The position numbers and the translations under genes are program-made. A stretch of 64,000 nucleotides of DNA. Origin: Cannabis sativa (taxonomy: Eukaryota > Streptophyta > Magnoliopsida > Rosales > Cannabaceae). The notes under the pieces are model-generated. The model was not told the origin of the DNA. It did not search any database and saw only the letters and a program-made list of their open reading frames with translations. The DNA is taken from NCBI RefSeq assembly GCF_029168945.1, contig NC_083610.1, positions 52,345,429 through 52,409,428 of the forward strand. Direction: 5' to 3'. This document shows, piece by piece, positions 6,158 to 59,447 of this stretch (position 1 is its first letter; each line of letters starts with the position of its first letter).

Positions 6158-6164
6158 TATAAAA
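6158..6164 (+). promoter_or_regulatory. TATA-like box for the antisense gene of F
   Basis: TATAAAA lies about 465 bp upstream of the candidate ATG at 6623, on the strand opposite to F's gag-pol. About 230 bp downstream comes a GTAAGT splice donor. The element could drive its own antisense transcript from here; the start site is inferred, not seen. Confidence 0.45.
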
Positions 6165-6714
6165 TTGAAACAAAACATCTATTTCACCATTTTTGTTTTT
6201 TCAAACCTCCAAGCTTTCTGAAAATCACGATTGCTTCCCCTTCTAAACTTGCATGCCCTCATTGTCTCTGACCTACTTCCTGCGTGTAACATCAGATTAC
6301 ATTTCCAGTCTCAGAAATTTTTAGGACCCAGTTTCTCAATTTTTGAGATTTCAATCGCGTAGTTCTAACTTTTCCAGAAATTTCAACCAAGACAGTAAGT
6401 GATACACTTCCTCTTCTTACTAATTTTTTCTTTTTTGTACTCATAATTTTTTTTCTTGATTGATATTCCCTATCTGCATTATTTTGTTATTATAGGTAAT
6501 TTTGATTTTGTTTGTTTGAATAGTTTTAGGGCTGACAAATTTTAGGTTATTTGATTCATTGGTTTTTTGGGTTGAACTTGTGTTTAACTTTTCCAGAAAT
6601 TAGGGTGATATTGTCTGTAAATATGTCCCAATCTATTCTAGAAATCACAATCCCAGAATTCCTAGAATCAAATTATCCTCAAATTTCTATTGTACCATTT
6701 AGACCCAAAATACA
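6165..6714 (+). pseudogene. Antisense accessory gene of F, 5' part (5' UTR, intron, first codons)
   Basis: The plus strand carries a TATA-like box, a leader, a splice donor GTAAGTGATAC at 6395 and a pyrimidine-rich acceptor (TTTAACTTTTCCAG ending 6596; alternative AG at 6495). An ATG at 6623 then opens MSQSILEITIPEFLE. The coding frame is cut at 6714 by element B. It resumes at 39415 with DLPKTILKLNDE, and the codon at the junction falls inside the target duplication (ATACA / ATAGA). Upstream, 5951-6157 shows nothing else. The gene belongs to the same family as the antisense genes of B and E. Its function is unknown. Confidence 0.6.
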
Positions 6715-7405
6715 TGCTATCCAGTTTTTTGCACATTGACGTGGCGAGACGACCGAGGGACACGTGTCTCACATTTCTGATACCTGGGTGGAGGTAAATG
6801 TCCCTAGCAGCCTACACATAATTGGTCAGCATCTATGATTGTCAATTACCTGAGCAGAGTTGTAAAGAAGGCATGTGACCAGGTAGAAGACTATTATGTC
6901 GAGCCACTTACAAAATATAATTACTTCAGAATGATCTTGTTATGTCCAGACATGAAGACAATCCCTACAAACGTGGGATTGAGTCAGAGAAATATGACAA
7001 CCTATTCTAGTTTCCTATTTCGTGTATTGTAATTATGTAATCATTGTAATTTCCTATTTTAAGCATTATAAGAAAAAGGGAAACCATGTCTCATGCATTA
7101 AGCCCCTATAAATAGTAACTTAGCCTCACTATGAAAGGGATCGAAAGAATTGCTTCAGAGAAAAAATAGTGATCTAAGAGAATTACTTAGAGATCAATTG
7201 TAAGAGCTTTCAAAGAGGAAGAATACTTTGTTCCTTCTCTTAAGTTAATACAATCCTAGGGGAGTAGGCTATTACCATGCTCACAAGGTCGAACCTCTTT
7301 AAAATCTGGTGTTCTTTTTACTTTATCGATTTCGTTCTCTTTTAATTATATTATTCAATCGCTTAGTATTTGACTCACTATTGTTGGCTAAAAGCGAAAT
7401 CAACA
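6715..7405 (+). repeat. 5' LTR of element B
   Basis: The 691 bp run from TGCTATCCAG to GAAATCAACA and align throughout with 38709-39414. A TATA box (TATAAATA, 7107-7114) lies in a well-conserved part. The primer binding site follows at once, marking this as the 5' copy. Confidence 0.85.
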
Positions 7406-7427
7406 TTTTAGTGCTTTCATTGAGAGC
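7406..7427 (+). promoter_or_regulatory. Primer binding site region of element B
   Basis: TTTTAGTGCTTTCATTGAGA follows the LTR. The same stretch, read GTTTGGTGCTTTCATTGAGA, follows the 5' LTR of F (minus strand, 49018 downward). This conserved position after the LTR is where the tRNA primer anneals; I do not assign the tRNA. Confidence 0.6.
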
Positions 7428-10157: not shown

Positions 10158-10305
10158 GGTCAAGAAGGAAAATACCTCCGGCTAGAGTTCGGACAAGGGA
10201 AAAGGCATGACCCAATAGGAAGTTTCCCAAGACAAGGACGAAGACATGGATCCCCAACTTGGGGAATCAAACGCAAATGTAGGGCCAATGTGAGAACTAG
10301 AAGAA

Positions 10306-11280
10306 GTGGAAATCGACCCAAATATCCTAACTAGGAAACTCAAAATTGGTAAAGGGTTATTGCTCGAAATAAAATTAGCTTTAATAACATTTCAGAGAGT
10401 AAACCTGGACGTTTTTGCCTGGTCACATGAGGATATGGTCAGTATTGATCCCACTATAATGTCTCATGCCCTAAACATTGACCCAAACTTTCGTCCCATC
10501 CAACAAAAGAGAATACTACTGAACAAAGAATGGGCGCAAGCATTGAAAGTAGAGGTAGAGAGACAGCGCAAAAATAGGTTCATCATTGAAGCTTTCTACC
10601 CAGCTTGGGTAGCTAACCTCATACTAGTACCCAAGCCTAACAAAAAATGGGAAGTATGTATTGATTTCACTGACCTCAACAAGGCGTGCCCCAAGGACTG
10701 TTTTCCACTTCTAAATATTGTTCAACTTGTGGATGCAACAGCCGGGCATGAAATCTTGAGCTTCATGGATGCCTATTTGGGGTACAATAAAATCAAAATG
10801 CATCCACCAGACCAAGAACATACAAGTTTTCGAATAGATATTGGTCTGTACTGTTACAAGGTTATGTCGTTCGGTCTGAAGAATGTTGGAGCTACCTACT
10901 AGAGACTAGTAAAACAAAATGTTTAAAGACTAGATCGAACGAAATATGGAGGTATATGTAGATGATATGCTCGTTAAATCCAAGAAGGCTAGGGGCACAT
11001 AGAGGATCTGGATGAATGCTTTAAAATCCTCAGAAAATACAACATGAAACTCAATCCCTTAAAGTGTTCCTTTGGGGTTAGCTCGGGTAAGTTTCTTAGT
11101 TTCATTGTCAATGCTCAGGGGATAGAGGCTAATTCAGAGAAAATACAAGCCCTCCTGGACATGAAATTGCCAACAAAGACGAAAGAAGTCCAAAGCTTGA
11201 TTGGTCAGATAGCCCCACTTAGCAATCGTTTCAAAATCAACAGATTAGTGTGTTCCTTTCTTCAACATCCTCTGAGGTAA
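10306..11280 (+). pseudogene. Reverse transcriptase of element B
   Basis: This is a Ty3/gypsy RT. The first 198 codons include FRPIQQKRILL, ILVPKPNKKWEVCIDFTDLN, KACPKDCFPL, ILSFMDAYLGYNKIKMH and VMSFGLKNVGATY, then a TAG at 10900-10902. After a frameshift the catalytic loop is present as MEVYVDDMLVKSKKA at 10949-10993, and the thumb side (LNPLKCSFGVSSGKFLSFIV) continues from 11044. Tyr-Val-Asp-Asp is intact but the frame is cut twice. The Gly in the DAYSGYN motif of relatives is retained, while Ser is replaced by Leu. Confidence 0.8.
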
Positions 11281-11655
11281 TAAAAAGTTTGAGTGGACAG
11301 AGGAATGCGAGAACGCCTTCCAAGAATTAAAAAGAAAACTTACAAAGCCTCCCGTACTCTCAAAACCCCTAGATGGAGAAGAGTTAGGAATATACTTGGC
11401 TGTCGCCGAATATGTTGTAAGCGACATGCTGATAAGAGAAGAAAACAACGTCTAGCATCCAGTCTATTATATCAGCAAAAGACTCGTTGAAGCTGAATGA
11501 CAATATCCCTTAATAGAAAAGCTCACTTACTGCCTGATCTTAGCAAAAGGCCCTATTTCCAAGCTCACACTATTTGAGTATACACCGACTAACCATTGTG
11601 CCAAGTATTGCAAAAGCCTGATGCCTCTGGGCGGTTAGTTAAATAGGCAATAGAG
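11281..11655 (+). pseudogene. First RNase H region (RT-linked) of element B
   Basis: After RT comes a degraded stretch with recognisable pieces in shifting frames: an EWTEECENAFQELK-like start (about 11290-11330), a region about the cell 'VSDMLIREENNVQHPVYYISKRL' type in several frames (11410-11490) and an FQAHT-like end. The same order is seen in E at 53881-54240. No intact frame exceeds 65 codons. The assignment rests on position and on similarity to E. Confidence 0.55.
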
Positions 11656-12260
11656 TTGGGTCAGTACAAAACAATCTTTCAACCCTGTACCAAAGTTAAG
11701 GGACAAGCCTTGGCAGACTTTGTAGTAGAGTGCACAGGCAAAGAAGAAAGCAACATAACGGACATCCCGGAGCCAGTACAAGAGTCCCTGGCAGAAAACA
11801 ACGAAGATAGACATACCTTAAAATTGCACGTGGACGGATCAGCCACATACCAACTTTTTGGTGCAAGAATTGCCCTTGTCACACCTGGGGAGCAACACCT
11901 ACATGCAAAAATAAAATTTGGGTTCAAGGCCTCCAACAACAAAGCAGAATATGAAGCCCTCATAGCTGGACTAAAACTTGCTCGGGAAGTGCATGCTGAG
12001 TACATTGAGGTCTGTACTCTGTAGTGATTCGGAGCTGGTAGTGAGTCATGTTTCAGGAGAGTACGAGGCCCGAGGAGAGAAAATGATGGCCAATATAAGC
12101 AAGATACAAGACCTACTCGCACAATTCAAGGGTTACACCCTCAGGTAGATTCCAAGAGAAGAAAATACAATTGTTGACGCCTTAGCCCAGCTTGCGAGCA
12201 GCATAGTAACAGATAAGGCCAACCTAGTCCCAATCTAATTCTTAGAAGAACCCAATATCA
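11656..12260 (+). pseudogene. Second, archaeal-type RNase H of element B
   Basis: The frame 11656-12024 reads KGQALADFVVECTGKE, then KLHVDGSATYQLFGARIALV and KASNNKAEYEALIAGLKLA. The Asp of VDGSA and the Glu of AEYEAL are two RNase H catalytic residues. The later Asp-containing block (SDSELVVSHV-like, about 12025-12050) is reached after a stop near 12024. A second RNase H of this type after the RT-linked one is a mark of the Tat lineage. Its role is thought to be in RNA removal during replication. The C-terminal part (to 12260) has further stops. Confidence 0.75.
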
Positions 12261-12280
12261 ATTGTGCTGAAGAAGTCAAA

Positions 12281-13459
12281 ATGATAGACACAACACCAAA
12301 CTGGATGACACCCATAGTAGCCTACCTCAACACTGGAGTACTTCCAAATGACAGGAGCGAAGCTCGGAAGATGATGATGAAAGCTGCACGGTATATCATA
12401 GTAGAAGGTGTGATGTATAGAAAAGGTTTCTCTATTCCATTACTTAGATGTGTAACAAAAGAAGAAGTTGCACGACTCCAGTCCGAGATACATGACGGAT
12501 TCTGTGGCAACCACGCAATAGGACAAAGCCTATCAAAGAAAATACTAAGGCAAGGATATTTCTGGCTGACAATGATGGAAGATTCAAAGGCCTAAGAAAT
12601 ATGACAAACTCCAGAGATTTTTGAAGATCACCCGTGCACTGCCTAACGAGCTAATGCAGATGCAAAGTCCTTGGCCTTTTTCCATTTGGGGAATAGATCT
12701 GATCAGACAATTGCCCAAGGGCAAGGGCAGAGTACAATATGCAGTGGTCGCCGTGAATCATTTTACAAAGAGGATAGAGGCCGAGCCTTTAGCAATGATC
12801 ACTTCTAAAAAAGTACTAGACTTTGTGGTGAAGAACATAATATGTCGGTTTGGACTTTTGCACAAGATCGTTTCGGACAAAGGCAAACAGTTTGATAGCC
12901 AGATGTTTACAAATTTCTGTGTGACACATGGAATCATAAAAAGTTTCTCTACAGTAGCACACCTCAATCAAATGGTCAGGTCAAGGCAGTCAACAAGACA
13001 ATTAAAGACACCCTAAAAAAATGACTTGAAGAAGCTAAAGGAAACTGGCCGGAGGAACTACTAGAAGTATTGTCGTCATACCAAAAAACAGAGAAAATAG
13101 CAACTGAGCAAACACCATTTGCTATGGCCTATGGTTATGAAGCCATGTTGCCCGTGGAATTAGAGCCTCTATCCCACAGAATATTAACCTACGATCAAGG
13201 AGCTAATCATGCCCTCTTAGCATAATCACTTGACGAGATTGAAGAAAAATGAACCTCGGCAAACCTAAAGCTAGTGGCTCATCAGCAAAAGGTAGCTCGG
13301 TACTTCAACAAGAAAGTGAGGGCAAGAAATTTTTTTGTGGGAGATATGGTCCTCAGAAGAGTATTCCTAAACACAAAAGATAGTGCGGCCAGCGTGCTCT
13401 GACCTAACTGGGAATGACAATATCAGGTGGTCGAAGTCACAGACAATAGAGCATATAAG
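12281..13459 (+). pseudogene. Integrase of element B, C-terminus interrupted by C
   Basis: The zinc-binding region is partly kept in 12281-12595 (EIHDGFCGNHAIGQSLSKKI) but the second half with the Cys pair is lost around 12596. The catalytic core continues in 12621-13016: WGIDLIRQLP (first Asp), KIVSDKGKQFDSQMF (second Asp) and, after a frameshift, the NGQVKAVNK-like block with the Glu (about 12970-12995). A conserved EELLEVLSSY-type stretch and a VGDMVLRR-type C-terminal domain follow with stops. Element C inserted at 13460; the match resumes at 34235, where RYWNGEHLRKY-like sequence ends the domain. Confidence 0.75.
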
Positions 13460-16954: not shown

Positions 16955-16975
16955 ATTATTATTATTATTATTAAC

Positions 16976-17238: not shown

Positions 17239-17241
<3 letters not shown>

Positions 17242-17286: not shown

Positions 17287-17287
<1 letters not shown>

Positions 17288-24265: not shown

Positions 24266-24289
24266 AATTTCGGGACGAAATTTTCTTTT

Positions 24290-35014: not shown

Positions 35015-37869
35015 TCACACAGCAGGAGTACCAGGTTCCTTGTACGGATTAGTTTGGTCATTAGAGGCTGGAGTCTCAGTGTTTTGATCGGTCAGAGCTG
35101 TGGAGTTAGCTACCTCACAGTTTTCCTTATCTTTTTGGCCCGCACAGTAACTAAGATATGCCTCTTTGGTATCACTGAGGTAATCAAAGTTTCCTTCTAG
35201 GTTGGCCTTCCAAAATTTGTAGAAAACTTCCAGGGTGGTAGACTCCAAACTCTCGACCTCCTTCAAAAGCTCTTCCTCCCTTGTCTGCCTGGATTTGACA
35301 TCCTCTTCCAATTTCCTCTTATCTGTAGTTAAAGTGGCAAGAAGAGTCCAGAGATTTTCCCTCTCGTCCTTCAAACTATTGACCTCGTTGGATAGAACCT
35401 CGACATCCGCCTCAAGCTGGGCGGTAGATGGCATCTCTAGCATCTCCTTCTTCATCTCCTCAACTCGATTATTGGTGGCCAGAAGTTGTTTGTTCACCTC
35501 GCCCAACTCTTCCCTTACGACCTCGACCTCCTTCTTGGCCACATCCACCTCTTTCTATAGATTGGTAGTGGTGGTGATAGTTTTCACGGCAGTAGACTTG
35601 GCTCGGGAGTAAGTGACGACCATCTTCAAATTGAGCCGCATAGGAAAAGGTTAAAACCTACACGGATAAAGGGATAAGATAAAAACCAAAGGAAAAAATA
35701 CTTACTCAGGTTGACTCCTTCAGGAGCCCGCCCATCAGAAGCTCCACGAACATCTCGTCCTCTTCGAATAGTTGGTCGTTTACCTCAGGAAGTAGCCGAT
35801 CCTTGTAGTGCTCTCCTTGCCCTTCTTGGTCTCAGGGTTTAGCATGATAGGAGTGTTTCAGGGCTTGGGCAGACCAGACCCATCTGTGCTACCTCCCTTG
35901 GCACCCTTGGACTTGAAGGCCTTCTTAGTTGGTGGCTCCACCTCAGACACCACCTCCTCAGAGACATCGATAGGAGACTCGACCAAGCCTTTCTCCTTAG
36001 GCAGTATTTCATCACCCTTTATTCGTTTGGGCAGAGGGGTCTGGCCGGAGCTGTCACCTGACCTCTTCTTTAGAGCCTAGAACACATTTTGAGACATGGC
36101 TTCACATGGACATAATAAGAAGGTTAAAAAAAAGTATGATATAAGCCAAAACAGATAAAAATTAAATATGAGTTAAAATACCCTACACGTAGGCAGGACT
36201 GTTCTCCCGAACAAGTAAAGATGGAGGCTGATCATCTGAAGAGTCTTCTTGTTCCTGCTCTATCAGAACAAATTTTTCCTTTCCCTCCATTGGGGCAGAT
36301 TGCCGATCAGGTCTTCCAAGCTCTTCCCTGATCCTGATAGACCGCTCAACAAGTGTTTGGCTACTTGGAGAATCCTTCTGTTTCCTCTTCTTGCTTGGAG
36401 TTTCTTGTCTGGGCACAGCCTCCTTTGCTGTCTCACAGCCTTGGTACAAAATCAGCCTAGAAAAGTTTATACTTGACAAAATTGGCCTTGGAAGTCAAGA
36501 GGGAGACGTTCCGTGTGACAGGAGGCAGTTGAAGAATCTTTTGTGCCTTCTTCCTAAGCTCCAGTGTGAACAGAGGGTAGCAATAGGACGGCACCTGCTG
36601 GAAGCTGCTGTGAACGGTGCCCATTCCTTTGACGAAGTAGTATTCGTCCACAAAGCCCCTTATCTTGGTCACCTCGTTGGTCGTGGTGCCCGTCAACCAT
36701 TTCTTTTTAATCTGGGAAACATAGAAGAATCCCGACATGTTATGCTTGGGACTTGACTTCAGATCAAAGAGCCAATTGGTATCATGCAGGGACGGCTCAC
36801 CCCATCCTTGTATGGCGTAAAGGATGAACAGGGCAGACAAATACTTGAGGCCCTTTGGGGTGAATTGGGTCAGACTTATATGGTAATAGTCGGCAATCCT
36901 CTTTAAGTATGGGAGCATGGGCAACATCGCACCCTACTTGGTATGGACTCCCGACTAGGCATAGTAACCTTCCCCTGGGCTAGTCGCCAGTTGGTAAGGG
37001 GAGGGAAGGAATCATTCGACACTCCCTAGGTAACCATGGTTGAGAAAATTCTTCATCTTTTCCATGGTCACCACGGATGGAGTAGAGACCCATCGATCTC
37101 CTAGTGCACCTTGCCTCCTCAGGGGGATGGCCTCGATGTACTCTTCAATAACAAAGCCTTCACTGACCTCCAAAACCTCCCTAGCCTCAGACACGGGTTT
37201 CCCTTCTTCGTTGAAGCCATCGAATGGCAGCACCTGAGCTACTCCCTCTTCTTCATCTCCTTTTGCCTCAGGAGGAGTAGCAGGATGGACCTCGCCTTGG
37301 TCCTCCATCTCTTGGACTTCAACGTCCCCAATTGTGTCCTCCTCTTCAGTAGTAGGCCGACCCTTTTTTGCCTTAGGAAAGGTGGCGAGACGGGCGATGT
37401 GTGGGTCAGACAATGAAGATTTCTGTACATTTTGCTTGGTTTGCGCCATCATTCTACACCTGGACAGAATTTTGTTTGTGTGCCTAGCGATAGTTTCAGC
37501 AAAAGTGGCAACAGGTTTACCTCCAACGACAGGGTTTGGACGGCCCTCGGGCAAAGTGTCAACGATGTCGAGACGGACTATGTATGTCCAGTAGGATGGA
37601 AGATAGTGTCTCCACCCCTTTTTGAGTTCCCGAATAGAGCGATCGTATCCTGGACCTTGGATCTGGCTGGGATAAAAATGGTGTTGCAGCTCGGGTTCTG
37701 GGGAAGGCGTGTGTTCACTACTTACTTCCCAATCTTCAAAGATAGAGTTAGAGAGGTTATCACTGGACAAAGATGGGCTGGCACAGAGATGAGGATGATC
37801 CTCGTATAATAGTTGAAGCAGATCCTGGTCCATATGGTGTTTGCCTCCCCAAAACTCACCAGGGTTCAT
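35015..37869 (-). pseudogene. Antisense accessory gene of B (PF04195-like N-terminus, coiled-coil C-terminus)
   Basis: It runs opposite to gag-pol and starts at ATG 37869 ([18 protein letters not shown]). The first part is acidic with a conserved [13 protein letters not shown]. Next comes a stretch like the 'putative gypsy type transposon' domain: [46 protein letters not shown] (36927-36457). Then come a Ser/Glu-rich segment, a basic one and a long coiled coil (35548-35015) ending PYKEPGTPAV. Two candidate introns lie at 36186-36100 and 35705-35637 (donor GTAAGTA; the acceptor AG of the second is mutated to CG). Lesions are stops near 37012, 36955 and 36930, and a frameshift at about 36470. 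The family is recognised; its function is unknown. Confidence 0.7.
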
Positions 37870-38400
37870 CTAAAAAAGGTAGGAGACAAGAAGATGGGAA
37901 TTGGTTGGGGCAATGAATAAAAAACAGGTTGGATATACCGACCAGGTCTGATTGAGGAGTCAAAAATAAAATTTTCATTCAGAAATGGAACTTTCAGCCC
38001 AAAAGTTCAAAACTTTGAATTGGAGTCTGATTCTCACTAAACCCCAAATGGATAAGTGAAGGTGAATATCATGGGGTTAAAATTAGATCGAACTTAGAAT
38101 CAAATGTCGTGGTTAAGCAAAGTCGAGATTTCAAAATCTTAAACCTAGAATTTCTATGGTTATCCTAGAAAACGTTCAAGAACAATCAAGATTCGTAGAC
38201 AAAAACCAAGAAAATTAAGCATGAAAATGTATAAAAGAAATAAATAAAGAACTTACTCACTAATTTGAAGCTTTTGATCTACTCGAATGGTGCTGGCAAG
38301 TTTCCTAGAAATTCTTCGAAGAATTTGAGAGAGGAAAATTTCTTTGCTCTGGTTTTTCAAGAATAAAAATGTCTAAAATGATTAATTAGGGTTTTCAATC
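37870..38400 (-). other. 5' UTR and leader intron of the antisense gene of B
   Basis: On the minus strand a donor GTAAGTTCTT starts at 38256 and a pyrimidine-rich acceptor CCTACCTTTTTTAG ends at 37870, directly before the ATG at 37869. The 387-bp intron would place the start codon as the first three bases of exon 2. The upstream leader exon includes the stretch CTTGCCAGCACCATTCGAGT. No other ORF is seen. Confidence 0.55.
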
Positions 38401-39414: not shown

Positions 39415-42163
39415 ATAGATTTACCAAAAACCATTCTCAAATTAAATGATGAAAGGATTAGAAATCATCTTATTAAAACCAATCAAGATGAAAATTCCAG
39501 TCTCTCTAGACGATTTTTGCAAGAAATAGCTGAGGGTAAACACCATTTTTTGCGAGAAGCTACTTGGCCTAAACCCTAAAATTTAACTAATATTCCTTTA
39601 GCGAGACCTTTGTCTTTACCTCTAGTCACTGTTGCTTTTTCACCAGGTGCCTTAGATTTTGAGATCATGGCCTCAAAAGCTCCAAAATCCAAGACCCCTC
39701 AAGTCCCCACCGCTACCTTCGAGGCAGAGCTCATTGAGTCTAAAGTTAGATACGTAGGAGCTTATGTTGGAGAGGTACTAAAGTCATGTGGCATCAAGTA
39801 TGGGCAAGAATGTCGAGTTAGGTTTGTTGCGCCAGGAGAATCCAGTCGCTTTCCTCTTGAACGTGTAAATCAAGAGGAAGGTTGTAGTACAAGCGAGCCG
39901 TCTAGGATAGGCGCTTGGGGCCTCGAACACATAAGATTTGGAGCAGTACTTCCTCTCAAAGACTACTAAAAGGAGTTATGCAATTACTTAGGCATTGCTC
40001 CCTTTCAACTGATACCAAATTCTTACAGAATATTGGCCAATTTGAAAGTTTTATATCAAATCTTGAAGTGGGAGTGTCCAACCCCACTAGAAATTTTGTA
40101 TTTCTAATATGTGAAGGCATGTCCTACAAGGAAGTGTAGGAGCAAGTGGTTTCTATTATCTCAAGACCCACACCAATGATCAAAGGATCATTGTGAGATT
40201 GCCTAATAAGACTGAATTCAAGGACAAATTCTTTTGGACAACCGGTCTCGCCCCTATCAACATAACTGTATTTCGTATAATATGTAAGTTTTTGCCTTAT
40301 CTCAAAAACTTGGTTTTGAGTTTTCAACTTAATAATTGTAGGCATTTACTTATTTCATTTATGTTATATTGACAATAGTTACAAGGAGGCCCATTGCGAC
40401 TCCAGAATTTGAAAGAAGACATAGGATTCTTCTCGGTCTCCCCTTTGGGTTGCAAGCGGCTGAATTCTTACTACAAGAGGACAACCTGAAGACCTACAAC
40501 CTCCTCAGTAGCAACCAGTCTACCTAAAACTTCAAAGTCCCCAAATACTCTGACTGGCAACAAGTTTCAGTCCTTGTCAACGAAGAAGACGGGGATTACG
40601 TGGCTCACTCCCACTATTTGAGGAGTATAACCCCTCAGGAAGCTGAAGAAGATGCCTCCCAAGTTAATAACTTTGGTCTCTTTGGATGGTCTCCTATTGT
40701 ACTTTGAGTCGAGCGTACTAACTTAGTTAAATTTAAGGATAGCCAGTACAATTTTTACATTTGGAATTGTGTAGATCGCATAGCCCATATGTTTGATAGT
40801 TGGTATCCCGAGCACCACATTCAATTAAGTTGTAACCGTTCTTACTTCGAAATTGCCCAATAGTTGTCACCAATTTTGATAGGGTGAGCCATCCAGATTG
40901 GGACATGTCTCCCTTAAATACCTTTGACCTTTTCATGATCACTGGATCTAGGGAATTTATTTGTTATTATAGTTCTTAATCTTCATCTAATGACTATGGT
41001 AATTTTCTTAAGTGGGAGATTATCTCTACACATTTTCCTTGTTTATTTTGAACAAGTGTTGGTGTTCTTCTTTTATTGTCTCACAAATATGAATTTTGAA
41101 AACCTTCTGTCAAGCCCTCCAAGCTCCAAGAAAGGTAAGAAGCGAGTTGTTGCTTTGAAAACTTCTTCGGGGACGAACCCTGAACCATTGAAGATATCAA
41201 GAAAGACCACAACAAATAAGAAATGTGCCTCGACTCAGATGGTTATTGAGCCAGTCGTTCCCCACATAACCTCCCCACTCCCAGCTGTTACGAGCACCGA
41301 TCAACAGGTTCTAAAATCTGTTCATCAGGTTAAGTTCTCAGGTTCACAACCTGAGTTAGTGTTTTTGGAGCCCTCCTGCCCCCTGCCAAGTCATGCAGGC
41401 ACTACAGGCTCGCAAGCATGCTCGCAGCTCACTACTTCCTACTGGCGTCATTACAGATATTTTCAACAAGATGACTGGGATTTGATTAATAATGGTGACT
41501 TCTAGAGCTTATCTGAGAGGAGTCTAAATCTCACTCTATTGATTAGTCTTTATCTTCATCTCATATTTAAATTTCTTACTCTTCCTTTGTCATCCTTTTA
41601 CTGAATTGTTTTTAATTGCAGGAATCTCTCTTTTCTCACTTGGCTCACCAAAGAGGCCTTCAAAAAATTGAGCAATTGGAATCTGAGCTTCGCACAACCA
41701 TTGAACAACATGAATTAGTTGCGAGGCAATGGAATAATTTCGAACAAAGGTTACTCAATTAATGAAGGAGGCTGAGGAGCAGAAGAAAAGTCATAAGGCT
41801 GAGCTCAAAGGTGCTAAAAAAGAAGCCAGTGATCTCCGTGAAGCCCATCAGAGAATTTAGGAAGATCTTGACGAGGCCACCAAAAAGCTTAATGAAGCCA
41901 GCAAAAAACTTGAAAGGGTCAAGGAAAATGCCATAGCTAGGATAAATTTGATCGCCAAACGATCTATTTATTGACCTTGGGTGGCAAATCCAAATATGGA
42001 CCTAAGCTTTTTGGGGGAAGGAGTCACTGCGATGTTGGCCTTTTGCGAGCAAACCAAAAAGATGAAGCAGGGATTGCTAAGGATGAAGAGGCCGAGGAAG
42101 AAGAAGAAGAACCAACTAAGTCTCCAACCAAGTAGACTTAGTTATTTTTATTTTAATTTCTGA
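39415..42163 (+). pseudogene. Antisense accessory gene of F, main part
   Basis: The frame from 6714 resumes here (DLPKTILKLNDE) and runs through a stop at 39577-39579 to 39966 (EHIRFGAVLPLKDY), which begins the PF04195-like region. KELCNYLGIAPFQLIPNSYRI follows after a TAA. A clear intron lies at 40284-40378 (GTAAGTTTTTG ... GACAATAG); joining its ends keeps the frame (ITVFRI / TRRPIATPEF). A basic segment starts MNFENLLSSPPSSKKGKK (41092). Before the next exon an acceptor TTTTTAATTGCAG ends at 41621, followed by a coiled-coil segment (LQKIEQLESELRTTIEQHE) with stops. The end is near 42163. The arrangement agrees with B and E. Function unknown. Confidence 0.65.
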
Positions 42164-42949: not shown

Positions 42950-44280
42950 ATTCATAACATTGATCAATCATTAGAGAGATAAATACAACATTTATATAAT
43001 AAAATTGTTGGTAATAAGGCCGTAAATGCTCGTTGTTCCAGTGAGTCTTTATTAGCTAGCCATTAAGCCAAGCTAATTTATAAACCCCAGTTCCTACAAC
43101 AACCTCAATAATATATGGACCTTCCCAGTTTGGGTTGAACACTCGTGCTATGGGATCTCGCGTGTTTGCAAAACACGTCTTAATACCAAATCTCCTACCT
43201 TAAACAACCTTTTCCGGACTCTTTTGTTAAAGTATCTCGTTATTTGGCATTGGTAAGCTGCATTGGTTATTTGCAATTCATTGCATTTTTCTTCAAGTAG
43301 GTCCAAGGACATATTCAAAAGTTCTTGGTTTTGCTCTTGATTGTAGAATTCGCGCCTGTGGGTCGCAATGTTAACTTGGGTAACATTGCTTTCAAGTCGA
43401 ATGCCAATGAGAATGCAGTGTGTCCTGTTATTATTTTCTCTGTAGTTCTATGGGCCCAGAGCACTTGTGGTAGTTCGTCTACCCATCTTCCTTTGGCAAC
43501 ATATAACTTCTTCTAAATAGTATCCTTTAAGGTTTTATTAACAACTTCTACTTGTCCATTTGCCTGAGGCCTCGATACTAATGAAAACCTTTTAATGATT
43601 TTATTTCTTTCTATGAACTCAGTGAATAGTTCACCATCAAACTGAGTTCCATTATCAGATACTATTTTGATTGGAATGCCAAAGCTACATATGATGTTCT
43701 TGATAACAAAATTGAGAACCTTTTTGCAAGTGATGGAAACTAAAGGTTTGGCTTCTATCTATTTTGTGAAGAAGTCGACTGCCACAACTGCATACTTCGC
43801 TCCACCTCGCCCTGTGGGTAAGGCCCTAATCAGATCAATTCCCCATATTACAAATGGGTATGGCGAGGTCATCATTCTCAATTTGGTTGGTGGTATGCGA
43901 GGTATATGTGAAAACCTTTGACATTTATCGCATCTCTTAACAAATTCATGTGTGTCTTTATTGATTGTTGGCCAATAATATCCTTGACGGATAAGCTCTG
44001 CCAACCTGCATGATCTCCACAGAAGCCTTCATAGATCTCTTTAATTATTTCATTTGCTTCTACTGGTAACACACATCGTAAGAGAGGCATGGAATAACTT
44101 CTCCTGTACAATTTCCCATCGACCATCGTATAACGAGGTATTAAGTATAAGAGTTTGCGTGCCTTGGTTTTGTCTGTAGGAAGTTCTCCACTTACTAGAT
44201 ACTTGAAAATTGGAGTCATCCATGTTGGCAAAGTATCTATCATCTCGATTTATTCCTCTTCACATATGCTTGGATCGCCT
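42950..44280 (-). pseudogene. Integrase of element F
   Basis: From the minus-strand N-terminus: MIDTLPTWMTPIFKYLVSGELP, then the zinc-binding region (EIYEGFCGDHAG and KRCDKCQRF), split by a frameshift near 44000. The core reads FVIWGIDLIRALP (first Asp), KIVSDNGTQFDGELF (second Asp) and a NGQVEVVNK block (Glu). The C-terminal domain finishes with THWNNEHLRPYYQQFYY (about 43050-43000). All three catalytic residues are recognisable, but several stops and frame changes lie between 43500 and 43000. Confidence 0.75.
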
Positions 44281-45141
44281 AAGACCTCCACTGGTACCAA
44301 ATTCAATTTATCGAGATCAAATTGAGATGCTAGTTTTGCTAGTGCATCTGCATTAGAGTTTTGTTCTCTTGGAATTTGTTCAATTTTAAAATAATCAATC
44401 TTTTCTAAGTTTTTTCAAACTTTCTCTAAATATTTAGCCCTTTTTAGGCCTTTCGCTTGGTATTCTCCCAAGACTTGGTTCACAATTAGCTATGAGTCAC
44501 TATAGCACGTAATGTTTTTGACTTTTAGTGCCTCAGCTATTTTTAAACATGCTAATAAGGCCTCATATTCTACCTTGTTATTTGAAGTATCAAACTGAAA
44601 TCTCAGTGCATAGTGGAATTTGTAGTTTTCTGGTGACATCACTATAACTCCTGCCCCCGAGCCATTCTCATTTGAAGCCCCATCAACATATAGTTTCCAT
44701 GTTTCTGCCCCGCGTTCAACATCAAGGTCTTCTTCGGAGTTTATTCCTTCTATTAAAAAGTCAGCCAAAGCTTGTTCTTTGATTAATACTCTCGGGTGAT
44801 AAGTTATGTCAAATTGTCCCAATTCAATCAACCATTTTATCAATCTTCCTAAAGCATCAGGATTTTATAAGACGTGTCTTAATGATTGATTCGTTAAGAC
44901 TTTAATTGGATGTGCCTGAAAAGATGGCCGCAACTTGCAAGATGCATGAATTAAGCATAGTGCAAGTTTTTCTAGAGGTGGGTATCTCGATTCTGCCCCC
45001 AGTAAACTTTTAATAACATAGTAAATAGGTTGCTGGTTCTTACTCTCTTCTCACACTAAAGCTGCACTGATGGCATGTTCCAAGACAAGAATATAAAGAT
45101 ATAAAGTTTCTCACCTTAAATGCTTCCTCGCACTCTTTAGT
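44281..45141 (-). pseudogene. RNase H regions of element F (RT-linked, then archaeal-type)
   Basis: The RT-linked part (45141-44850) is in pieces: EHAISAALV, PIYYVIKSLLGAE and LRPSFQAHPIKVLTNQ, with two stops. The second RNase H is open at 44843-44490: HPRVLIKEQALADFLIEG, KLYVDGASNENGSGAGVIV (catalytic Asp), NNKVEYEALLACLKIAEAL (catalytic Glu) and ITCYSDS (Asp). It is the best preserved of the three second RNase H copies here. A short linker with an LREQNSNADALAKLAS-like block (about 44390-44330) leads to integrase. Confidence 0.72.
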
Positions 45142-45984
45142 CTATTTAAATTTTTTATTGCCTCGCAAAATGTTAAAAAATGGGAGATACTTATCAGTTG
45201 ATTTTGAAATGAATCTATTGAGTGCTTCCATCCTTCCTATTAAAGCCTGAACTTTTTTTGGCTTTGTTGGTGAGGGCATCTCGATTAAGGCCTTTATTTT
45301 TTCTCGATTGGCTTCAATTCCTCTTGCATTGACAATGAAGACCAAAAATTTTCCTGAGGAAATCCCAAGAACATTTTCCATCCAATATGGTTCTCGAACA
45401 TACCATTTACAAGACATTGGTATGTCGCTCTAGCATTTTTTAATCCAAACAGCATGAATTTATAATAGTAAAGTCCCATGTTTGTTACAAAGCTCATATG
45501 CTCTTGATTTGGGACATGCATTTTAATTTGGTTATATTCAGAGTATGCATCCATGAAAATCATCAACTCATGTCTTACTGTTGCATCCACTAACTGATCA
45601 ATCCTAGGTAGTGGAAAGCAATCTTTGGGACATGCCTTGTTCAGATCTAAAAAATATATACAAGTTCCCCAAGTGCCATTTGGTTTTGGAACAAGGACTG
45701 GATTTGAAATCCACGAGCGGTAGAAGGCCTCTTGTATGAAGTCATTAGTTAACAATTTGTCAACTTCTTCTTTGAGTGCACCTTGTCTCTTAGAATCCAA
45801 TGGTCGTCACTTTTGATGTTTTGCTCGATAGTTGGGGTCGATATTTAGATGATGACAAATTACTTTTGGATTTATTCCTACCATGTCCGAGTGGCTCCAG
45901 GCGAACTAATCCTGGTTTGCCCTGAGAAAAATAATTAATTGCTATTTTAGTTCTTCCTCCAAATTTTTCCCAATGTAAACACAC
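45142..45984 (-). pseudogene. Reverse transcriptase of element F, catalytic loop deleted
   Basis: The frame 45800-45294 has MDSKRQGALKEEVDKLL, NPVLVPKPNGTWGTCIYF, LNKACPKDCFPLPRIDQLVDAT, FMDAYSEYNQIKMH and LFGLKNARATYQCLVNGMF. After FENHIG the sequence jumps to LGISSGKFLVFIVNARG. Compared with B about 40 codons are missing, including the block with the catalytic Tyr-Val-Asp-Asp. In B and E that block is present, so the loss belongs to this copy. The thumb side runs to 45142. Confidence 0.75.
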
Positions 45985-49901: not shown

Positions 49902-49906
49902 ATAAC

Positions 49907-50095
49907 CTACTTCCCTTTTAGTTGTATTGATTTGAGAGATAACACCACTCAAATTATAGGCTTTTACCTTGTAATTTCTAGAGTGGCTCTCTATGAATAG
50001 TATAATAGTGAGAACAATGTAAGGTGAATCTCAAATGAGTGAGATGAGAAACAGACTTAGTCTCTAGTTCACTGCAGGTGTCGTGTAGTAGAGAG

Positions 50096-53202: not shown

Positions 53203-53880
53203 GTATTGACTTTACCGACCTCAATAAGGCGTGTCCAAAAGACTGTTTTGACTTCACTGACCTCAATAAGGCTAGTGTGTATTGACTTCACCGACCTCAA
53301 TAAAGTGTGTCCAAAAGACTTTTTTCCACTTTCAAAAATCGATCATCTTGTGGATGTAACAGCCAAACATGAAATCCTAAGCTTTATGGATGCCTATTCG
53401 GGGTATAATTAGATAAGAATGCATCCACCTAACTAAGAGCACACTAATTTTTCCACAGATATTGGTTTATACTGTTATAAAGTTATGTCATCTAGCCTCA
53501 ACAATGTTGGGGCTACCTACCAAAGGTTAGTCAACAAGATGTTCAAAGACCAGATCAGGCGTAACATGGAAGTATATGTGGATGACATTCTCATCAAATC
53601 CAAAAAGGCTAGGGGGAACATAAAGGATCTAGATGAATGCTTCAAAATCGTCAAGAAATACAACATGAAACTCAATCCCTTAAATTGTTCCTTCAGGATC
53701 AACTCATGTAAGTTTCTTGGATTCATTGTCAATGCTCGAGGGATAGAAGCTAATTCAGAGAAAATTCAAGCCCTCCTAAATATGAAGTCGCCAAAAAGAT
53801 GAAAGAAGTGCAAAGCGTAAATGGTTAGATAGTCAAACTAAGCAGATTCATTTCAAAGTGAGCAGATAAGTGTGTTCCTT
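53203..53880 (+). pseudogene. Reverse transcriptase of element E, N-terminus lost, motif triplicated
   Basis: It opens with three imperfect copies of the 'CIDFTDLNKACPKDCF' coding stretch (about 53203-53250, 53246-53275 and 53276-53325). It goes on with HLVDVTAKHEILSFMDAYSGYN, a stop, then FGLNNVGATYQRLVNKMF-like sequence (53485 on). The catalytic loop MEVYVDDILIKSKKARG is intact, followed by LNPLNCSFRINSCKFLGFIVNARG and a stop at 53800-53802. It is the same RT type as B and F. Confidence 0.75.
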
Positions 53881-54482
53881 TCTTCAACATCCTCCAAGGT
53901 AATAAGAAGTTTGAATGGACAGAAGAATGTAAGAATGATTTTCAAGCTCTCAAAACCCTTGGAGAAGAAAAATTAGGAATCTACCTTGCAGTCACTGAAT
54001 ACACTGTAAGCATTGTGCTAATAAGCGAAGAGAACAATGTTCAACATCTAGATTATTATATCAGCAAAAGACTATTTGGGGTTGAGGGTTGGTATCCCCT
54101 GATTGAAAAATTAACTTACTGTTTGATCCTAGCCACAAGGAAGTTAAGGCCTTACTTCCAAGCACATCCAGTTCGAGTCTACACCGACCAACCTGTACGC
54201 CAAATTTTGCTAAAGCCTAATGCATTTGGATGACTACTCAAATGGGGAATTAAGTTAGGATAGTACGAAATAACTTACCAACCCCGCACAGCAGTAAAAG
54301 GGCAAGCCTTAGTAGATTTTGTTGTTGAGTGCACAGGTAAGGAGGCAGACAACTCTAAAGATAATCTTGAGCCAGAAGGTGAATAAGAAAGAGCACCCCC
54401 AATCAAAAGAAAACTGTGAAGATAAACTAATCTGGAAGTTACATGTGCTGAATACCTTGAAATATATAATGACTCATAATTA
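53881..54482 (+). pseudogene. RNase H regions of element E, second one mostly deleted
   Basis: The RT-linked RNase H is partly open at 54015-54233 (ENNVQHLDYYISKRLFG, LIEKLTYCLILATRKLRPYFQAH, RVYTDQPVRQILLK). The second RNase H starts with GQALVDFVVECTGKE (about 54300) and a WKLHV stretch (54435). It then jumps to the end of the domain (NTLKYIMTHN), so the part with the VDG and AEYEAL catalytic motifs is missing compared with B. Confidence 0.65.
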
Positions 54483-55985
54483 GTGGTAAATCATGTCCTG
54501 TGCGAATGCACAGCTCAAGGAGAAACAATGGTGGCATATTTCAGTAAGATCCATGACCTGCTTGCACAATTTAAGGGATACAACCTTAAACAAATTCTAA
54601 GAGAAGAAAATGCAACAGTTGATGCACTGGCACCGCTAGCAAGCAACACATTAACAAACAAAACCAACTTAGTTCCAATCCAATTTCAAAAAGAACCTAG
54701 CATCACATGCACGGAGGAAATCAAAATGATAGACAACACACCAAACTGGAATACTCCCATAGCAGCCTATCTTAAAACTGGAGACCTTCTAAGCAACAAG
54801 AATAAGGCTCAAAAAATGATGAGAAAGGTTGCATGATACAAATAATAGAAGGTGTAATGTATAGAAGAGGTTTCTCCATGCTATTTTTAAGGTGCATAAC
54901 AAATAAAGAAGTTGCACGGCTCTTATCTGAAGTTCATGAAGGCTTTTGTGGTAATCATGCTAGGGGCAAAGTTTGTCTAAGAAAATACCAAGGTAAGGTT
55001 ATTTTTGGCCAACGATGATTAAATATTCAAAGGCACATGTGAAAAAATTTGACAAATGCCAAAGATTTTCCAAAATCCATGAAGCACCTCCAAATGAGTT
55101 AGTGCAAATGCAAAGTCCGTGGCCCTTTGCCATATGGGGAATAGACTTGATCGGACAATTGCCCAAAGGAAAAGGTGGAGTACAATATGCAGTTGTAGAG
55201 TAGATTACTTTACCAAATGGATGGGGTCGAACCATTGGCAACAATAACATCCAAGAAAGTTTTGGCTTTTGTGGTAAATAAACATCATATGTTGGTACAG
55301 ACTTCCACAAAAAATTGTTTCAGATAATGGGAAAACATCTGACAACCAGATGTTCACAAACTTCTGCACAACACATGGAATCATCAAAAGTTTCTCAGAA
55401 GTTGCACAACCCCAAACAAATGGACAAGTCAAAGTAATCAACAAGACATTAAAAGACACCATGAAAAAATGGCTCAAAGAAGCCAAGGGGAACTGGCTGG
55501 AGGAACTACCAAAAGTACTTTGGTCGTACAGAACAACTGAAAGAACGACAACCGGGCAGACACCTTTTGCCATGGCCTATGGCTGTGAGGCAATATTGCC
55601 CTTTGAGTTAGAACCTCCATCCCATAGAAAATTAACTTATGATCAAGAGACTAATCATGCCCTCCTGGCAGAATCACTTGATGAAGTTGAAGAAAAAAGA
55701 GATTTAAGGAATCTAAAGCTACTTGCTCATCAGCAAAAAGTGGCTCGATACTTCAATAAACAAGTGAAAGAAAGGAAATTTTTTGTGGGAGATATGGTAC
55801 TCAGAAGAGTGATCCTGAACACAAAAGACAGTGCAGCATGAGTGCTTGGACCTAATTGGGAAGGACCATACCAAGTAACTAAAGTTAAAAAATCTGGAGC
55901 ATATAAACTTCGTCGGTATGACAAAAACATGGAAATAGTTCTAGTACCAAGGTACTGGAATGGTGAACACCTAAGAAAATACTAG
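54483..55985 (+). pseudogene. Integrase of element E
   Basis: It comes in four frames. 54483-54836 is the linker (ILREENATVDALAPLAS, MIDNTPNWNTPIAAYL). 54833-55018 is VMYRRGFSM and EVHEGFCGNHARG (His pair). 55015-55203 is KKFDKCQRFSK (one Cys changed to Phe) with FAIWGIDLIGQLPKGKG (first Asp). 55350-55841 is IKSFSEVAQPQTNGQVKVINK (Glu) to VGDMVLRRVILNTKDSAA. The second Asp is in a short shifted piece near 55320 (VSDNGKTSDNQ). The domain ends with RYWNGEHLRKY at 55951-55983, followed by TAG. Confidence 0.75.
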
Positions 55986-56665
55986 CAATAAGTGTGAAAG
56001 GTATGGGGACCACACAAGTTGCACAATGCTCGAACACCACTCTTAAGTGGTGGCCTTCTGACCACTTTCAAAGTAAAAACTGTTCAAAATCATTGCTCTT
56101 AAGCAATGTCTTTTGGATGGATTATACCGTTCAAATGTTTTATGTTTAAATTAGATAAAGATCATATAGATCATGTAATAGCTTTTATAATTCAATAAAT
56201 GTACGTTACTATGGTAACAACACATATCGACCAATAAATAAATAAAGATATTAATTATCATTCAAATTGTGTCAATTTTATGTCTTTTTTGCAAATTATA
56301 GCAAGTTATTTAATTACCTAAAATGCGTACAAAGGGTTTGCCTAAACCTAAAAGTTTGGCAGACAGAATTAAAACTTGTGAAATATAAGTGACCAAGAGT
56401 TATAAGTTCGCTCGGTCACTTGGGGGCAACTGTACCCGTACAAGCATTGGTAAAAAACAAGCTCAAGCAAAAAATTAAATTCAGATTTAAGGGAAAATAT
56501 TCATATTAGGTTAACAAAGCAAAATAAGTCTAAGATTAAAAGTTGTTTGGCCAGCCAATTGTCTTAAGTAAAATGAAATTTTTTTCCAAGTTTAAAAGCC
56601 ACCTGGTCTGCCATATTGTACTAACAAATAGGCCCTTAGGACGAACAGATGAAAAAAGTTTTGAA
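55986..56665 (+). other. Element E between integrase and antisense gene
   Basis: No coding sequence. It corresponds to 34300-35014 of B, including TCTTAAGTGGTGGCCTTCTG (56042-56061) and the stretch GGTCACTTGGGGGCAAC. This is the gap between two convergent genes. Confidence 0.55.
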
Positions 56666-56668
56666 ATT

Positions 56669-59447
56669 TTACTCCATTGGAGTCTCAAGTTCTTTATATT
56701 GATCAAATGAATCTTGAGCGGTAATAGTTGAATCTTCACAAGTAAGGTTCTGATGCTCTTGGATGGTAGAGGAGTCTTTATTGGTCAGCTTTGCTTCTTC
56801 CTCAACTTTTTGTGCCTCGCAAAAGCAAAGAAAGCTAGTACATAGTTCTCCTTTGATATATTCAAAGTTGGCCTCAGGATTTTCCTTCCAGAACTCATAG
56901 AAAATGTCTAGGGAAGATTTTCCCAAGCTCTAAACTTCCTTCTGAGGGCTTACCGCTCAGCATAAGAAGTGACCCATTCAGCATCAAGAGCTTCCTACAA
57001 GGCATTTTTCTCTCTCGTCATCTCCTTAACCTTCGCTTCCTAGTTTTGAAGGAGGGTATATCCTTCATGGCATTCAGTTCCTTGGTCACCGCTTCAAGGT
57101 CCTCCTCGAGCTTGGTTATGGACGATATGTCTTTAATATCTTGCCTTAGATCTTCAATGATCTTGTTTGCAGCAACAATTTGCTTGTTTACCGCGCCTAA
57201 CTGAAAAACTCTTTGGCTCGACCTTTTTTTTAGCATCCTCTAGTGCCTTTTTCAGTTCGTTGGTAGCTGTTGTGGCCTTTAGAGTAGCAAATTTAGCTCA
57301 AGAATAAGTGTACGCCAACTTCAGATTAACCTACACAAGAAAACAAAGTTAAAGCCTGTATAGAGAAAAGCCTGTATAAAGATAATCTTTAAGCAAAACA
57401 CTTACTCGGGTGACCTCTTTCAATACTCTATCGAGCAAAAATTCCACTCGCATCTCCTCCACCCTTATGAGTTTCTCATTTACCTCAAGCATCACATTGT
57501 CTTGATAAAAACTGAGTATTTTTTCCCTTCTTAGTTTCTGGCTCGAGTACGAGTGGAGTGCCTAATGGCCTTAGCAGTCTGGGCCCCTCAGAGTTGGCCT
57601 CTTTGGAAATTTTGACCAAAGTAGTAGAAGCTTGAGACTTGGTATTCTTCTTGGTCGGAGGAACAACTTTAGGAGCAGCATCAGGAATCTCTGAGGAGTC
57701 AGTAGCCAAACTCCTCTCAGTATTGACCTGAGTAGCTTCAAGCTTGGAGCAATACTCTTAGGCACAGTATCATCAACTTTTGGACGTTTAATCGGAGACT
57801 TCTGGCTGGATGCATCGCCTTCTTTTTCTTCAAAGCATGCAGCATTCTCTCTAACATGACTGCATTAAAAGAAAGAATACTTGTTAAAAACATAATCATA
57901 CAAGGGTAAACAAGGTTAAAATAGAATGATAAACTACCATGTACATCGATGGGAGCACCCTCCCGAGCAAGTAGTGAAGGGGCGTCCTCATCAGAAGAAT
58001 ACTCCTCTTCTTCCTCGATCACCATGTCCTTTCCCTTTCCTACCACCTAGAAAGTTTGACGATCAACCTCATCAGTGTCATCCCTAATCCTTATGGGCCC
58101 CTCAATCGGTACTTGATCACTCTAGGAAGTCTTCTTCTTCTTCTTCAGAACCGCTTGCTTGATTGTAACCTCCTCAGTCACTCGCTTGGGCTCCTTAACT
58201 TCATCAGACGGGTAGAGCCCATACTTAATGAAACTAGCCTCAGTAGCCAAGAATAAAATATTCCAAGCTAACTCTGGAAGTTCAAGTATTTTTGGGCTCT
58301 TATCCGAAGCTCCACGGTAAAAGGGGACAACAATAAAATGGAATATGTTGGAAAGTGATTTGATTGGACCTTGACAAAACAGTAGTCCTCTACAAACCCC
58401 CAATCTTGGACACATTCGTGTTTGTAGTGTCGGTCAGCCACTCACACTCATTCTAGGAAAAGTAGAAATACCCAGACCTATTTTTCTTGGGGCTGGATTT
58501 TAGAAAAACAAAAAAAAAAAAGCCAATTCGTGTCATGGGCAGATGGCTGACCCCATCCTTGGGAGGCATATAGCATGAATAGTGCAGATAGATACTTTAT
58601 GCCCTTGGGGGTAAGTTGGGTTGGACATATGTGATAATAATTGGCTATTTCTTTAAAGAAAGGATGCAAAGGCAACAATGCACCCTGTTTGGCATGTGGT
58701 CTCGACCATGCATATAATCCACCTCTAGGATTTGTTGCTAATTGTCCTAGACTAGGAAGGAACACTTCCACCTTCTCGAGGATACCTTTTTCAAAGAGAT
58801 TAGTCAATCTCTTGAAGGTTAGCACAGACGGTGGTGAGACCCACCGAGCACCCCTCAAACCTCGACTGTTTGAAGGTCGAGCCTTTGTATATTCTTCCTC
58901 CACGTAATCTCATCTTCTTCTTCTTCCTCTCCCTCGGCCTTGAAAGGACTGGTAGGGCAGACCTCACCCTCATCCTTAACCTCTAGGACTTCGATGTCCC
59001 TTCTAGAAACTACTTCATCCTCACTCAAAGGCCTGGCTTGTTCTACCCAACTGTTGTAAATAGTCAGGCAAGGTGAGGATGAAATGAGAAGACCTTGCTC
59101 ATAGTTTTCTTGGTCTGTGTCGTCATTCTATGTCTACAAACATTAAGTTTTAGATGTATGCCTTGCAACAGTGATAGCAATATCAGCTACGGTAGTACTC
59201 CTGGCAGATGGATTTGCTTAACCCTCTTGAAGTGTGTCTACACCAGATTAGACCCTATACGTTCAAGAAGAAGGAAGATAGTGTCTCCAACATTTCTTCA
59301 ATTCCTAAATAAAATGGTCGTACCCCTCTCCACGTATCTAATCGAGGTATTAGTGGTGTTGCACCTCGGGCTCTGGGAACTCTGTATGGTCACTACTCAC
59401 TTCCCAATCCTCAAAACTAGAATTTAAAAGATTATCACCGAATGAAG
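56669..59447 (-). pseudogene. Antisense accessory gene of E, N-terminus cut off by copia element I
   Basis: It is the same gene as in B. From the minus-strand N-terminus: EDWEVSS-like remains at 59425; EEYTKARPSNSRGLRGARWVSPPSVLTFKRL (58903 on); the PF04195-like block YAWSRPHAKQGALLPLHPFF, EIANYYHICPTQLTPKGIKYLSALFMLYASQGWG and HDTNWLF; an acidic EEEEEYSSDEDAPSLL; a basic start MLERMLHALKKKK; and a coiled coil ending QYKELETPME at 56669. Two well-formed introns lie at 57937-57860 (donor GTAGTTTATC, acceptor TTTTAATGCAG) and 57405-57331 (donor GTAAGTGTTT, acceptor TTTTCTTGTGTAG). The first about 40 codons lie beyond element I. Stops and frameshifts are present. Confidence 0.7.

What the first reader, a model, noticed from the sequence alone, without database searches (positions are those of the whole stretch)
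6158..59447. A spliced gene on the opposite strand, shared by three Tat-type elements
B (37869-35015, -), E (59447-56669, -) and F (6623-42163, +) each carry, opposite to gag-pol, the same multi-domain gene: acidic N-terminus, PF04195-like block, basic segment, coiled coil. B and E share two introns at the same places in the protein: one just before the M...ALKK exon, one before the VNLKL / LNLKM exon. Canonical donors (GTAAGT) and pyrimidine-rich acceptors are seen, and F shows matching traces plus an extra intron. Antisense ORFs are known in Tat-group elements. A conserved multi-intron build, which argues for real transcription from the antisense strand, is less familiar to me. An RNA spliced in antisense would not be spliced in the genomic sense transcript, so the introns survive retrotransposition.
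Basis: partly seen in the sequence, partly recalled or inferred. Interest (0 to 1): 0.88.

Follow-up and report, generated by a model that had tools for sequence, protein, structure and literature searches.

The report
Spliced antisense gene inside plant retrotransposons
Three old jumping genes in this plant DNA, and a younger family elsewhere in the same genome, carry on their opposite strand what looks like one ordinary gene cut up by introns and, in the younger family, kept intact by natural selection, so fragments usually listed as separate reading frames may be one gene.

Summary
B, E and F are Tat-type Ty3/gypsy remnants, each with a gene opposite to pol, broken by short T-rich GT-AG introns at shared places and phases. 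E is cut off at 59447. F has introns at 40284-40375 (extra), 40999-41086 and 41542-41621.

In the window's own genome, a younger PF04195 family ("K") reads as one 653-codon frame only after two phase-1 introns are removed. Over 20 copies dN/dS is 0.07-0.13 per exon; exons have 0.1-0.9 indels/kb, coding introns 10-15/kb. In the old B and F families introns and exons differ little in overall substitution, but every exon stretch tested peaks at third codon positions in the spliced frame. Intron II is shared, in one phase, by B, E, F and K.

A spliced antisense gene is thus strongly supported from DNA; no RNA was available. Antisense TRP28 ORFs are known; introns in them were not found in eight literature searches. 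New variant of a known kind.

The parts
37870..38256 (-). B: 5'UTR intron (GTAAGT ... TTTTTTAG, directly before the ATG)
   Evidence: GT in 17 of 21, AG in 20 of 23 B-family copies; edges read
36182..37869 (-). B: first coding exon (acidic N-terminus, TRP28-like block, basic segment), with stops and a frameshift
   Evidence: third codon positions most variable in both stretches tested
36100..36181 (-). B: intron II, 82 nt, phase 1
   Evidence: GT 20 of 24, AG 18 of 23 copies; 54% T
35706..36099 (-). B: second coding exon (basic), frameshifted
35636..35705 (-). B: intron III, 70 nt, phase 0; B's own acceptor reads GG
   Evidence: GT 19 of 20, AG 15 of 20 copies
35015..35635 (-). B: last coding exon (coiled-coil part)
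57938..59447 (-). E: first coding exon, cut off at 59447, frameshifted
57860..57937 (-). E: intron II, 78 nt, phase 1 (GTAGTT ... ATGCAG)
57406..57859 (-). E: second coding exon
57331..57405 (-). E: intron III, 75 nt, phase 0 (GTAAGT ... GTGTAG)
56669..57330 (-). E: last coding exon (coiled-coil part)
6158..6164 (+). F: TATA-like box (TATAAAA), 213 nt inside the element from the LTR edge 5945
   Evidence: a motif match only
6395..6596 (+). F: candidate 5'UTR intron (GTAAGT ... CTTTTCCAG); ATG at 6623
   Evidence: not tested in relatives
6623..6718 (+). F: start of the coding region, before the nested insertion 6719-39414
39415..40283 (+). F: coding region continued after the nested insertion (TRP28 block)
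40284..40375 (+). F: intron I, 92 nt, phase 1; F's own acceptor reads AA
   Evidence: AG in 7 of 8, donor GT in 2 of 8 (AT in 6) relatives
40376..40998 (+). F: exon between introns I and II
   Evidence: for 40376-40640
40999..41086 (+). F: intron II, 88 nt, phase 1; F's own acceptor reads AA
   Evidence: GT in 8 of 8, AG in 5 of 8 relatives
41087..41541 (+). F: exon between introns II and III
   Evidence: for 41087-41500
41542..41621 (+). F: intron III, 80 nt, phase 0; F's own donor reads AT
   Evidence: GT in 6 of 8, AG in 6 of 8 relatives
41622..42163 (+).
10597..13459 (+). B: pol, opposite to the B antisense gene
   Evidence: (RVT_1 in 10294-10902)
53278..55988 (+). E: pol, opposite to the E antisense gene
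43008..45722 (-). F: pol, opposite to the F antisense gene
   Evidence: (RVT_1 in 45294-45806, below Pfam's cut-off)

Best explanation
Tat-type (Retand-like) Ty3/gypsy elements of this plant carry, between pol and the 3' LTR and on the strand opposite to gag-pol, one complete eukaryotic-style gene: a 5'UTR intron ending at or near the ATG, then two or three coding introns of about 70-92 nt from a shared set. Intron I (phase 1, end of the TRP28 part) is in F and K; intron II (phase 1, two bases before an ATG codon) in B, E, F and K; intron III (phase 0, before the coiled coil) in B, E and F. Shown from DNA: intron places and phases, the single spliced frame in younger copies, purifying selection on each K exon, third-position excess in B and F exons, loss of frame constraint in introns, retention of an intron edge at 307 places. 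Inferred: a promoter inside the element makes an antisense pre-mRNA that the host spliceosome turns into an mRNA for one protein of about 650-900 aa (acidic N-terminus, TRP28, basic segment, long coiled coil), likely a nuclear regulator of the element. The sense genomic RNA reads the introns as their reverse complement, so they are not removed and pass through every round of copying. This would also explain why TRP28 genes face away from gag-pol: in sense orientation the introns would be lost on copying.
For: One 653-codon frame after removing two GT-AG introns of 83 and 76 nt; the frame runs to its normal stop in 11 of 20 copies, one more is open without a stop. Reading on into the intron meets a stop in 20 of 20 (I) and 19 of 20 (II) copies (frame set by phase 1). 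GT 20/20 and 19/20, AG 19/20 and 20/20. Codon positions 1/2/3.031/.023/.168.029/.018/.086.038/.033/.152; indels per kb per copy .12.22.90 in exons against 10.2 and 15.2 in coding introns, 2 of 38 of these multiples of three, 11 of 14 in exon 3. dN/dS .071.096.125; dN below dS in 190, 186 and 190 of 190 pairs. Third position highest in 5 of 5 B and 6 of 6 F exon stretches. 19 of 20 splice edges kept in four further subfamilies. Cannabis gene models join exons at these places (P0004, P0002, P0013). K is antisense to an RT-RNase H-integrase ORF. 307 unspliced edges, 0 spliced.
Against: No RNA. The search for a processed, spliced genomic copy found none, so no direct trace of the mRNA. In B and F families introns do not diverge more than exons overall, and B's intron II has no more indels (5.6/kb) than some B exon stretches (9.1, 10.7). 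Donor I is AT in 6 of 8 F relatives. The 62 nt before the K start codon are more conserved (.030) than the exons, and K's 5'UTR donor is ambiguous: GTGAGA at L003 902 or a site further up. The 20 K copies were chosen for an open exon 1. Gene models disagree with one another in many stretches. One plant genome only. The regulatory role is untested, and the TRP28 fold model was poor.
Confidence: 0.88

Rival explanations
1. Several separate antisense ORFs rather than one spliced gene: each exon is its own ORF (the last K exon begins near an ATG) and the 'introns' are spacers.
For: Surveys list several antisense ORFs per element (PMC11963269); the exon after intron II starts with an ATG codon two bases in.
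Against: K exon 2 is under purifying selection (dN/dS .096) yet has no Met codon in L003; GT and AG are kept at both edges; phases match between families, and Cannabis models join the same pieces.
Confidence: 0.05
2. The antisense strand acts only as RNA (for instance as a source of double-stranded RNA that silences or tunes the element), and the frames are incidental.
For: Antisense RNA from such elements is proposed to do this (PMC7264820, passages).
Against: dN/dS .095 over 20 copies and 11 of 20 full frames cannot come from an untranslated RNA. An added RNA role is not excluded.
Confidence: 0.02
3. On origin, compatible with the best reading: the gene was captured from an intron-bearing host gene, in the one orientation in which introns could be kept.
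For: Intron II is shared in place and phase by B, E, F and K.
Against: Among the 13 homologues returned (capped, word-limited searches) I saw no clear single-copy host gene, and PMC7264820 reports the lack of similar gene sequences outside elements. Introns I and III differ between families, so gain or loss inside elements also happened.
Confidence: 0.35

Closest known systems
Antisense TRP28 (PF04195) ORFs of Retand-lineage Ty3/gypsy elements (PMC11963269; PMC6317226)
   Same: Same place (between pol and 3' LTR), same antisense orientation, same domain in K; B, E and F are related by sequence.
   Different: There described as separate uninterrupted ORFs; here exons of one spliced gene. 'Intron' does not occur in the main text of PMC11963269.
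gene23 of maize Grande (known to me through PMC7264820 and PMC11963269; the 2013 paper was not held)
   Same: Antisense accessory gene with its own promoter and a nuclear protein (passages).
   Different: Introns not mentioned in the passages seen; sequence not compared here.
Spliced antisense gene HBZ of HTLV-1 (PMC10186651, passages)
   Same: Antisense, spliced, nuclear regulator of a retroelement; works-like comparison only.
   Different: Promoter in the 3' LTR and bZIP protein; here the TATA-like box of F lies inside the element and no relation in sequence is claimed.
Sense-strand introns of plant LTR elements: Ogre, EVADE, Bagy2 (passages)
   Same: Introns inside plant LTR retrotransposons.
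   Different: Those are in the genomic sense RNA; these are antisense and should be invisible to it.

Membership tests
Tat lineage (Retand-like) of Ty3/gypsy | Ty3/gypsy pol with a second RNase H between RNase H and integrase | tested here: met
   K pol: RT 21-180, RT_RNaseH_2 244-342, RVT_3 420-537, integrase 701-797; definition from PMC6317226 passages; reading RVT_3 as the extra RNase H is my inference. B, E and F pol are homologous along this protein, not scanned for the domain on their own
Tat lineage (Retand-like) of Ty3/gypsy | Antisense ORF region between pol and 3' LTR | tested here: met
   B and F by LTRs and pol; K by pol only, its LTRs not found; E truncated
Tat lineage (Retand-like) of Ty3/gypsy | Target-site duplication at the LTR ends | tested here: inconclusive
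   5-bp scan: none for B; for F only matches without TG...CA ends
PF04195 (Transposase_28, TRP28) proteins | Curated Pfam score | tested here: met
   K only: 150 of 150 scored places over the cut-off, L003 exon 1 E 3.2e-13
PF04195 (Transposase_28, TRP28) proteins | Curated Pfam score for the B block and for B- and F-type Cannabis relatives | tested here: not met
   no PF04195 row; homologous by tblastn only
Spliced antisense gene | Spliced antisense RNA | not testable with these tools
   no RNA data
HBZ-type retroviral antisense genes | bZIP domain and sequence homology | not tested
   compared only as a way of working; not filed here

The most novel reading that the evidence does not exclude
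Across flowering plants, the antisense TRP28 and coiled-coil ORFs of Retand elements are exons of one ancient spliced gene whose phase-1 intron II predates the split of the families: a host-style nuclear regulator that the element can carry only because it faces away from the genomic RNA, so that the orientation rule of these ORFs is a consequence of its introns.
Probability: 0.58. Interest if true: 0.85.

Novelty: new variant of a known kind. Interest (0 to 1): 0.75.

Why it matters
A survey of 63 Retand clusters counted 104 antisense ORFs (PMC11963269); [quoted passage not shown] If the antisense ORFs are exons, part of that fragmentation comes from the way ORFs are called; the real protein is longer and under strong purifying selection. 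The orientation gets a simple reason, resembling the antisense-intron reporters used to score retrotransposition, and plants gain a parallel to spliced antisense regulators of retroviruses. Strand-specific RNA can test it at once.

Tried and rejected
Pfam on window ORFs of the antisense genes gave no PF04195; NCBIfam nothing for five relatives. The search for related loci in viral contigs and bacterial and archaeal genomes found no relative. The TRP28 model was poor (mean pLDDT 50.5) and its PDB matches meaningless (best E 5.9). Spliced, processed copies of K's antisense mRNA at intron II: 0 places with up to 3 mismatches; control, the unspliced donor edge: 307 places, 0 for the reversed pattern; by the variants at least 19 of the 20 copies would have matched if spliced. 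The same search at intron I did not complete. The E-family genome search did not complete, so E's introns are tested only by comparison with the B family. Rejected: an extra intron in B after FEDWE (GTAAGT at 37725), suggested by gene models P0004 and P0005; B and E keep protein similarity through that stretch. Eight literature searches listed no report of introns in antisense ORFs of plant LTR elements; most subscription papers are not in that library, and the 2011 and 2013 primary papers were not held. Of papers I saw: PMC7264820, the first third of the text and passages; PMC11963269, abstract, part of one section and passages; PMC12786077, PMC6317226, PMC10186651 and PMC10606437, passages only.
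Full report
What is in the window. Self-comparison shows a nest: F (LTRs 5058-5945 and 49021-49907) contains B (LTRs 6719-7405 and 38713-39414), which is itself interrupted between about 13.45 and 34.24 kb by other elements; E lies to the right, between LTR-like repeats at 50358-52221 and 59448-61328. A 985-aa RT-RNase H-integrase protein read from the same genome maps to B at 10597-13459 (+), E at 53278-55988 (+) and F at 45722-43008 (-). The antisense genes lie on the opposite strands.

The introns of B and E. Three-frame reading shows B and E as homologous proteins broken at the same places by short T-rich stretches with GT...AG edges. B aligned with 29 further copies (the 30 loci less B itself; 40 scored of 1279 candidates) settles the edges: 5'UTR intron 38256-37870, GT in 17 of 21 and AG in 20 of 23 copies that cover it; intron II 36181-36100, GT 20 of 24, AG 18 of 23; intron III 35705-35636, GT 19 of 20, AG 15 of 20. 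As a yardstick, a GT or AG of B in this region is kept on average in 59% (159 sites) or 66% (263 sites) of copies, and about a third of them reach 80%: the splice sites are above average, but only donor III is exceptional. The family is old and decayed. Introns are 51-54% T in B against 18-24% in the coding stretches. Third codon positions vary most in 5 of 5 B exon stretches, in the frames that splicing joins (exons A1, A2, B1, B2, C). Against a simple reading: overall distances are alike (exons .23-.28; introns II .26, III .23, 5'UTR .21), and intron II has 5.6 indels per kb, between the exon values of 2.3 and 10.7; intron III has 18.8. None of the 37 indels in introns II and III is a multiple of three, but in the dead exons such indels are also a minority in four of five stretches.

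F. Eight relatives of F (8 of 40 hits scored, fetched) show intron I 40284-40375, II 40999-41086 and III 41542-41621. Exon stretches have 3-10 indels per kb, introns 23-35, with 1 of 57 intron indels a multiple of three. Third positions are the most variable in 6 of 6 exon stretches tested. Overall distances again overlap (exons .22-.30, introns .21-.36). Donor I is weak: GT in F and 2 of 8 relatives, AT in 6 of 8, although its acceptor is AG in 7 of 8 and Cannabis model P0013 joins the exons there.

A younger family gives the clean test. Searching PF04195 in the genome, 150 of 150 scored places (of 3294 first-look candidates) pass the curated cut-off. One copy, L003, spliced at two GT-AG introns of 83 and 76 nt, gives 653 codons and a terminal stop. 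Its first exon carries PF04195 at E 3.2e-13 and its downstream neighbour on the other strand is the 985-aa pol ORF; this element is itself broken by another element's insertion further along pol (by the look of the sequence). I fetched 20 copies from the list, all with an open exon-1 frame of 326-339 aa (one is L003 itself). GT and AG are kept in 20/20 and 19/20 (intron I), 19/20 and 20/20 (intron II), 19/20 and 20/20 (5'UTR edges). Codon-position distances are .031/.023/.168.029/.018/.086 and .038/.033/.152 in exons 1-3. Indels per kb per copy are .12.22.90 in exons and 10.2, 15.2 in coding introns; 2 of 38 intron indels but 11 of 14 in exon 3 are multiples of three. The spliced frame reaches its normal stop in 11 of 20 copies; one more is open without a stop. 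Reading straight on meets a stop within intron I in 20 of 20 and intron II in 19 of 20 copies. dN/dS is .071.096 and .125, dN below dS in 190, 186 and 190 of 190 pairs. Choosing open copies favours conservation of exon 1, less obviously of exons 2 and 3. Introns differ at .09-.11, within the range of third positions outside CG contexts (.06-.15) and above first and second positions; the 62 nt before the ATG are more conserved (.030). Four further subfamilies (L001, L002, L005, L007; the fifth non-K locus, L008, was not aligned) keep 19 of 20 edges.

One architecture. Intron II has phase 1 and stands two bases before an ATG codon in B (G|CC ATG), E (G|TC ATG), most F relatives and K (G|AT ATG). 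Intron I is shared by F and K, intron III (phase 0) by B, E and F. In B and K an acceptor stands directly before the start codon. Computed Cannabis gene models join exons at these places: P0004 at intron II, P0002 at III with a later acceptor, P0009 and P0013 at F's intron I; other models skip or add pieces, and what evidence lies behind them I do not know.

Retention through copying. The donor edge of K's intron II occurs at 307 places at up to 3 mismatches, 0 for the reversed control; the exon-exon junction occurs at 0. This fits splicing on the antisense transcript only; it also means that no processed copy proves the mRNA.

The protein. A nuclear regulator is the likeliest role by analogy with Grande gene23 and retroviral antisense proteins (passages). 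Nothing here tests it.

Literature. The texts seen describe antisense ORFs with TRP28 in Retand elements, antisense transcription in Grande and Retand, and sense introns in Ogre, EVADE and Bagy2. 'Intron' does not occur in the main text of PMC11963269 or PMC7264820; the latter asks for a look at 'antisense and spliced transcripts'. Eight searches listed no report of introns in such genes.

Verdict. The finding is real and extends to a younger family under selection. What is missing is RNA, and a second plant.

Noticed in passing
564-1440 (+): ORF with PF20167 (Transposase_32, putative plant transposon protein), E 1e-19: part of another element at the left edge.
   Followed up: no
16780-27018 (+): A young element with 2.7-kb LTRs 97.8% identical and gag, protease, RT, integrase and chromodomain matches, nested inside B.
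   Followed up: partly
50365-52221 and 59448-61328: LTR-like repeats on both sides of E; the first has TG...CA ends and a 5-bp duplication TTAAT of its own, so it may be a solo LTR and not E's own; no such duplication was found for the second.
   Followed up: partly
5058-5945/49021-49907 and 6719-7405/38713-39414: B lies inside F, yet B's LTRs are less alike (88.5%) than F's (91.3%): the reverse of what insertion order predicts.
   Followed up: no
40284 (F) and relatives L061-L068: Donor I reads TATGTAAG in F, TACGTAAG in L065 and TACATAAG in most relatives: a CG that seems to decay on either strand and takes the splice donor with it.
   Followed up: no
L003 and copies L039-L058: Third positions of K exons 1 and 3 diverge more (.15-.17) than the introns (.09-.11), partly at CG-touching sites.
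   Followed up: partly
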